This document shows, one piece after another, positions 20,124-20,531 of a DNA stretch of 64,000 bases. The stretch's first letter is position 1. Each line of letters starts with the position of its first letter. The stretch spans positions 1,778,563 to 1,842,562 of the forward strand of contig CP011806.1 in the NCBI GenBank assembly GCA_001664505.1, read 5' to 3'. Made by a program: the position numbers and the translations under genes. The notes under the pieces are model-generated. The model saw only the letters and a program-made list of their open reading frames with translations. It was not told where the DNA came from and searched no databases. The DNA comes from Acidobacteria bacterium Mor1. GTDB lineage: Bacteria > Acidobacteriota > Polarisedimenticolia > Polarisedimenticolales > Polarisedimenticolaceae.

Positions 20124-20147
20124 CAAAGCGGTTCACCCGAGGAGACC

Positions 20148-20531
20148 ATGGACGAGCAACAGGCACGGACCACCCTGGAGTCTCGCGTCGCCGACGGCGC
20201 CAGACTGGCGATCGGCTCCGAGTCCGACTGGGCCAGCATCAAGCGGCTGCTGGAACGCTGCCTCCTGGCGGGGATCCCGGCGATGCTCGCCGACTGCCCC
20301 GGCGGCGGCTGACGGACCAAGGGGCGCCTCCTGGTCCAGGAGGCTGATGCACCGAAGCTGGCCACGTTGCTTCGAGGCGACTGGGAAGCAGAGCTGGAAC
20401 GAAGCGGTCTCGGCTTCGTCGCCCCCAAGGAGCCCGTGGGCTCGGGGGACGGAGTGCCCTGCCCCGCCTGCGGCACCAATGCCCCGCTGGTAGACGGCGC
20501 CTGCAGCGACTGCGGGTTGACCCTCGGTTGA
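20148..20531 (+). CDS. DUF2007-like zinc-ribbon protein with in-frame TGA: candidate selenoprotein
   Basis: Read through one TGA (20310-20312), this is a 127-aa protein in a single unbroken frame. Residues 17-80 resemble DUF2007/PII-like signal-transducing proteins: WASIKRLLERCLLAGIPAM before the TGA, then RTKGRLLVQEADAPKLATLL after it. Residues 105-122 form a CPAC...CSDC zinc ribbon. The TGA is codon 55 and follows Cys50 (motif C-P-G-G-G-[TGA]). Both sides keep the strong GC third-position bias of real genes, and the frame does not shift. A perfect 7-bp hairpin with a GGUCC loop starts 13 nt after the TGA. GAGGAG ribosome site precedes the ATG. Without readthrough the product would be 54 aa with half a domain. 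The alternative is a nonsense mutation. No Sec machinery is seen in the window. Confidence 0.65.
20326..20344 (+). promoter_or_regulatory. SECIS-like hairpin downstream of in-frame TGA
   Basis: GCCTCCT (20326-20332) and AGGAGGC (20338-20344) pair perfectly around the loop GGTCC. The loop opens with GG, and its first G lies 20 nt after the TGA. Bacterial selenocysteine insertion elements known from fdhF-type genes have a short stem, a small apical loop starting with G residues (AGGUCU in E. coli fdhF) and this kind of spacing. Function inferred from structure and position. Confidence 0.6.

What the first reader, a model, noticed from the sequence alone, without database searches (positions are those of the whole stretch)
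20148..20531. Candidate new selenoprotein: DUF2007-like zinc-ribbon gene split by an in-frame TGA
One continuous frame encodes a 127-aa protein only if TGA 20310-20312 is read. Residues on both sides belong to one domain (LLERCLLAGIPAM before, GRLLVQEADAPKLATLL after), with a zinc ribbon at the end, and the GC3 bias holds on both sides. The codon before the TGA completes C-P-G-G-G, so the site would be Cys50-x4-Sec55, a redox-like pair. No in-frame start with a ribosome site exists soon after the TGA. A DUF2007-type selenoprotein is not one I know as described.
Basis: partly seen in the sequence, partly recalled or inferred. Interest (0 to 1): 0.9.

Follow-up and report, generated by a model that had tools for sequence, protein, structure and literature searches.

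The report
Small zinc-ribbon selenoprotein with UGA-encoded selenocysteine
This small bacterial gene very probably reads a 'stop' codon as the rare amino acid selenocysteine: relatives keep the same codon and RNA hairpin or carry cysteine there, and it is a new, distant branch of a selenoprotein family first reported in 2025.

Summary
The window lies in a 5.985-Mb Acidobacteriota genome that has selA, selB, selC and selD; its selD also carries an in-frame TGA. TGA 20310-20312 falls on a column where eighteen homologs (nearly all Myxococcota) also keep TGA and most others carry Cys; the closest is 66% identical. All 19 TGA genes have a 6-8 bp hairpin about 20 nt after the UGA that fits the published bacterial SECIS model, with compensatory changes; Cys homologs mostly lack it. 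The AlphaFold model puts residue 55 in the beta2-beta3 turn of one domain. It is not a Pfam DUF2007 member by sequence, only a distant relative by profile comparison. The nearest named family is NCBIfam NF049953 / 'hypothetical protein DG', a selenoprotein reported in 2025. The window protein is a divergent relative (31.5 bits, cut-off 130), lacks its N-terminal zinc ribbon, and may carry Sec one residue away from the DG position. No paper found here describes this Myxococcota/Acidobacteriota branch. Function is inferred only: a redox or metal(loid)-thiol role.

The parts
20139..20144 (+). Shine-Dalgarno-like GAGGAG, 3 nt before the ATG
   Evidence: sequence
20148..20531 (+). CDS of 127-aa selenoprotein (U at residue 55), stop TGA 20529-20531
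   Evidence: homology and codon-position pattern continue across the TGA
20310..20312 (+). Sec codon UGA (residue 55)
   Evidence: TGA in 18 homologs and Cys in most others at the same alignment column
20326..20344 (+). bSECIS-like hairpin GCCUCCUG-GUC-CAGGAGGC (8 bp; as a 7-bp stem the loop is GGUCC)
   Evidence: compensatory changes in homologs; meets the bSECIS model in PMC13188914
20205..20402 (+). beta-alpha-beta-beta-alpha domain (residues 20-85); Sec lies in the beta2-beta3 turn
   Evidence: AlphaFold2 model, mean pLDDT 85.2; distant DUF2007 profile match
20460..20513 (+). C-terminal zinc ribbon, Cys105-Cys108 and Cys119-Cys122
   Evidence: the four Cys are present in all 48 aligned homologs

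Best explanation
The gene encodes a 127-residue selenoprotein. SelB with Sec-tRNA binds the hairpin at 20326-20344 and inserts selenocysteine at UGA 20310 (strongly supported by sequence evidence; not tested biochemically). Sec55 sits in the beta2-beta3 turn of a ferredoxin-like (DUF2007-like) domain followed by a linker and a zinc ribbon (predicted). Most likely, as inference, the selenolate is the reactive or ligand atom of a small cytosolic redox or metal(loid)/thiol-handling protein, with Cys50 or the clade-conserved Cys38 as resolving partner and the zinc ribbon as structural or docking module. The protein is a divergent relative of 'hypothetical protein DG' selenoproteins, and the gene was probably exchanged between Myxococcota and this Acidobacteriota lineage (inference). 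The confidence given is for selenocysteine insertion at residue 55; for the redox reading alone I would give about 0.45.
For: The genome has selA 516 bits, selB 330, selC 72.7 bits with UCA anticodon, and selD 358 with its own in-frame TGA. Residue 55 aligns with Cys in same-class homologs (invariant column) and with TGA in 18 homologs; over 48 family rows the column is U 19, C 22, R 4, G 2, gap 1. The nearest homolog L138 is 66% identical, clade support 98/90. selB is present in all three genomes with TGA homologs that were tested. All 19 TGA genes have a 6-8 bp hairpin with G in the first two loop positions at nt 24-28. Mean hairpin energy is -11.7 versus -5.0 kcal/mol for 24 Cys homologs, Mann-Whitney p 2e-7. 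In 14 aligned genes, 7 cells show a change on both sides against 2.9 in shuffles, and sliding the partners breaks the pairing. The first Leu codon of the hairpin is CTC in 19 of 19 although CTG is commoner in the window's genes. Only 4 of 1390 TGA triplets in the window have a hairpin this long and stable.
Against: No protein-level or 75Se evidence. For the window alone the hairpin is only p 0.07 against synonymous recoding, and folding the 51-nt stretch from the TGA gives z -0.98; the case rests on the set, whose sequences are related. A rival stem GGACCA/UGGUCC competes in some folds. No bacterial SECIS family of Rfam matches on this strand. Redox or metal function is not shown: the Cys at -5 is in 10 of 19, and no conserved gene neighbour was evident.
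Confidence: 0.93

Rival explanations
1. Pseudogene: a TGC (Cys) codon mutated to TGA and the downstream part is drifting.
For: Cys codons reach TGA by one substitution, and most non-Sec homologs carry Cys at this column.
Against: Eighteen homologs in other genomes keep TGA at the same column. The part after the TGA is as conserved as the part before, with changes concentrated at third positions. All four zinc-ribbon Cys are intact, and the bSECIS-like hairpin is present in TGA genes and mostly absent from Cys genes.
Confidence: 0.02
2. Sequencing or assembly error (true codon TGC or TGG).
For: Reads and assembly quality of the genome could not be inspected.
Against: The same TGA occurs in independently assembled genomes together with a hairpin that Cys homologs mostly lack; the genome is reported 99.98% complete in one contig.
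Confidence: 0.01
3. Programmed stop: the first 54 residues are the main product, or plain readthrough inserts another amino acid.
For: UGA is a leaky stop in general (own knowledge); some termination at Sec codons is usual.
Against: The model places the TGA between beta2 and beta3 of one domain, so a 54-residue product would be half a domain. No clear ribosome site precedes the later in-frame starts. The codon exchanges with Cys, not Trp, in the nearest relatives.
Confidence: 0.03
4. Within the selenoprotein reading: Sec55 is a metal or metalloid ligand (for example mercury, zinc or copper) rather than a catalytic or redox residue.
For: Zinc ribbons and Cys-rich loops are common in the family; DG-type homologs carry CxxxCC-like clusters at this loop.
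Against: No metal-resistance neighbour was evident in the ORF lists around the TGA homologs; no direct evidence either way.
Confidence: 0.35

Closest known systems
NCBIfam NF049953 zinc ribbon-containing (seleno)protein DG ('hypothetical protein DG', deep-Sep, PMC12013277; GUxG motif in PMC13188914)
   Same: Same superfamily: the best and only NCBIfam match (E 1.5e-7, model 50-171 of 172). Same central domain and C-terminal ribbon, Sec or Cys in the same loop; UGA followed by a SECIS-like structure in the published members.
   Different: Scores 31.5 bits against a cut-off of 130; the Myxococcota TGA relatives tested also stay below it (41-81 bits). Lacks the N-terminal zinc ribbon. Spacing around Sec differs (GGGU-RTKG versus a C-C-G Cys pair in DG members), so the Sec may sit one residue away. 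DG members above cut-off turned up only in the sample drawn around G407, a 'Deltaproteobacteria' MAG.
Pfam PF09413 DUF2007
   Same: Distant profile similarity over 53 columns (hhalign probability 85.9%) and a beta-alpha-beta-beta-alpha fold.
   Different: No Pfam match; the four PF09413 hits in this genome are other genes; Cys/Sec loop and added C-terminal ribbon.
Bacterial SECIS elements (E. coli fdhF type)
   Same: [quoted passage not shown] loop GGUC here, AGGUCU in fdhF (own knowledge).
   Different: Lower part of the stem is not clearly extended to the UGA; primary sequence otherwise unrelated.

Membership tests
Bacterial selenoprotein gene | Host encodes SelA, SelB, selC and SelD | tested here: met
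   all above curated cut-offs
Bacterial selenoprotein gene | In-frame UGA aligned with Cys or UGA in homologs, homology on both sides | tested here: met
Bacterial selenoprotein gene | bSECIS: loop 3-9 nt, stem 4-16 bp, G in first two loop positions, 16-37 nt from UGA, MFE at or below -7.5 (PMC13188914) | tested here: met
   8-bp stem with loop GUC (or 7-bp with GGUCC), about 20 nt from UGA, -14.7 kcal/mol for nt 14-37
Bacterial selenoprotein gene | Sec detected in the protein | not testable with these tools
   needs 75Se labelling or mass spectrometry
NF049953 (seleno)protein DG | Score above the curated cut-off of 130 bits | tested here: not met
   31.5 bits
NF049953 (seleno)protein DG | N-terminal zinc ribbon (model positions about 4-35) | tested here: not met
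   match begins at model position 50; no CxxC before residue 105
NF049953 (seleno)protein DG | GUxG motif at the Sec | tested here: inconclusive
   window has GURTKG; in DG members above cut-off the loop usually carries a Cys pair (C-C-G), leaving a one-residue ambiguity; no Sec-containing DG sequence could be fetched
Pfam DUF2007 (PF09413) | Sequence match to the Pfam model | tested here: not met
   no match at E up to 10 for the window protein
Pfam DUF2007 (PF09413) | Same fold / distant profile similarity | tested here: inconclusive
   hhalign 85.9%, E 5e-6 for a single pair; fold search: SctJ-type domains Z about 8, 2hfv Z 5.5, PII-like proteins Z 4-5

The most novel reading that the evidence does not exclude
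The window gene and its Myxococcota relatives form an undescribed selenoprotein subfamily (short form, GU-x-x-K type motif, no N-terminal ribbon) whose Sec arose separately from that of DG at a neighbouring loop position, and which has been passed between phyla together with its SECIS.
Probability: 0.4. Interest if true: 0.6.

Novelty: new member of a known kind. Interest (0 to 1): 0.5.

Why it matters
Selenoprotein genes are easily mis-annotated as truncated genes or two fragments. This case adds a branch found in 16 of 377 sampled genomes of one phylum (that of a Myxococcota MAG) and in one Acidobacteriota genome, with Cys twins for comparison. It gives a small (127 aa) test protein for what selenium adds in a DUF2007-like/zinc-ribbon domain of unknown function. 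It also shows that the NF049953 cut-off misses Sec members.

Tried and rejected
Pseudogene, sequencing error and two separate genes: rejected by TGA conservation, codon-position pattern and lack of an internal start. TGA read as Trp: rejected, homologs have Cys. Pfam DUF2007 membership by sequence: not met. Rfam SECIS families: one weak, chance-level match on the other strand. Plain dinucleotide-shuffle folding did not single out the hairpin; comparison across homologs did. Alignment A1 was too diverse for a collection scan; A2 worked. The hairpin pattern is absent from viral contigs. ORF lists around 12 homologs showed no shared neighbour by eye; these neighbours were not scanned with profiles. 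L008 (a TGA-containing hit in G033) aligns weakly, has Tyr at this column and its TGA elsewhere: discarded as chance. No match in the fold search says what the protein does: the SctJ/PrgK hits are at the level of a common small fold.

Full report
Observation. The frame 20148-20531 encodes 127 residues if TGA 20310-20312 is read. A GAGGAG ribosome site precedes the ATG, G+C by codon position is alike on both sides, and the few in-frame starts after the TGA lack a clear ribosome site.

Can the organism do it? The window lies in a single 5.985-Mb contig; same-class relatives found in the named genome collection are Acidobacteriota. It has selA (516 bits), selB (330 bits), a selC tRNA with anticodon UCA (72.7 bits) and selD (358 bits). 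SelD itself has an in-frame TGA in Cys-Ala-Gly-U, a usual Sec site in SelD (that this is the usual site is own knowledge). So UGA is very probably decoded as Sec elsewhere in this genome.

Homologs. Same-class homologs carry an invariant Cys at residue 55. A collection scan found three TGA homologs, labelled Deltaproteobacteria, Myxococcales or Myxococcota in their record titles, whose genomes have selB. A search of 377 genomes of the phylum of one of them found 16 genomes with TGA at the same column. The nearest, L138, shares DCPGGGU(R/K)TKGRLLV and 66% identity, and groups with the window at 98/90 support. Over 48 aligned family members the column is U 19, C 22, R 4, G 2, gap 1; the R and G rows are DG-type members in which the preceding position is the Cys. 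Between window and L138, third codon positions change most on both sides of the TGA, and 50 of 72 residues after it are identical. In 396 Acidobacteriota genomes the window's is the only TGA member among the strong matches; six same-class genomes carry Cys forms. Horizontal exchange with Myxococcota is therefore likely, but L138 lies on a 4.7-kb contig whose binning was not checked. The Sec label needs at least three changes on the tree, so Sec and Cys have been exchanged more than once.

SECIS. Each of the 19 TGA genes has a 6-8 bp hairpin whose loop (GUC, GGUC, GGUCG and similar) lies at nt 24-28 counted from the U of UGA. This meets the published bSECIS model: loop 3-9 nt, stem 4-16 bp, G early in the loop, 16-37 nt from UGA, MFE at or below -7.5 (PMC13188914). 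Twenty-four Cys homologs mostly lack it (mean -5.0 against -11.7 kcal/mol, p 2e-7). In 14 genes of the window's clade the stem is 87.5% paired, with changes on both sides at three pairs, and the signal goes when the partners are slid. The second clade forms a similar stem with other bases (CUCGC/GCGAG instead of CUCCU/AGGAG) around the same GGU loop. Caveats: sequences are related, the single-gene test for the window gives p 0.07, and shuffled-sequence folding is unremarkable.

Protein. AlphaFold2 (15-row alignment, mean pLDDT 85.2, pTM 0.62) gives helix 3-15, then beta 20-27, alpha 28-40, beta 45-49, beta 58-64, alpha 65-85, then a less confident ribbon. Residue 55 is in the beta2-beta3 turn, so a stop there would split a hairpin. 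The fold resembles small ferredoxin-like domains (SctJ/PrgK type Z about 8; 2hfv Z 5.5; PII-like Z 4-5), none of which implies function. The four ribbon Cys are in all 48 rows. Cys50 at -5 is in 10 of 19 Sec members; Cys38 is in all 14 of the window's clade, so Cys38 is at least as good a candidate partner for Sec as Cys50.

Comparison with known families. Pfam DUF2007 is not met by sequence; only distant profile similarity exists. The one NCBIfam hit is NF049953, (seleno)protein DG, reported as a new selenoprotein with TGA- and Cys-containing homologs in 2025 (PMC12013277) and listed in a 2026 review as GUxG (PMC13188914). The window protein and the Myxococcota TGA proteins tested stay below its cut-off (31.5 and 41-81 bits) and lack its first ribbon. 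Full DG members above cut-off (13 of 395 genomes) usually carry a Cys pair in this loop, so the exact Sec column may differ by one residue. I therefore file this as a new, divergent member of a known kind, not a new family. Literature searches gave no paper on this branch, within an open-access library.

Verdict. Selenocysteine at residue 55: supported by convergent comparative evidence, not by experiment. Function: inferred.

Noticed in passing
L104, strand -, around 2410-2412 (same genome, selD): The genome's SelD is itself a selenoprotein candidate: in-frame TGA in ASCAG-U-ASK.
   Followed up: partly
L179 (genome G957), strand -: A Cys homolog of the DG superfamily keeps a strong hairpin (-14.8 kcal/mol) after its TGT codon, possibly a fossil SECIS from a Sec ancestor.
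   Followed up: no
L068:3905-5959 (same genome): Subtilisin-like protease (by eye) with a long tail of ALWSDGALWSDS repeats.
   Followed up: no
L140 and L147: Two Sec homologs lack any Cys within 10 residues upstream of Sec, so a fixed Cys-x4-Sec pair is not required in the family.
   Followed up: yes
L166, L167, L173-L176: DG-type homologs lose one of the two loop Cys (CGP or CRG instead of CCG), suggesting that only one of the pair is essential.
   Followed up: no
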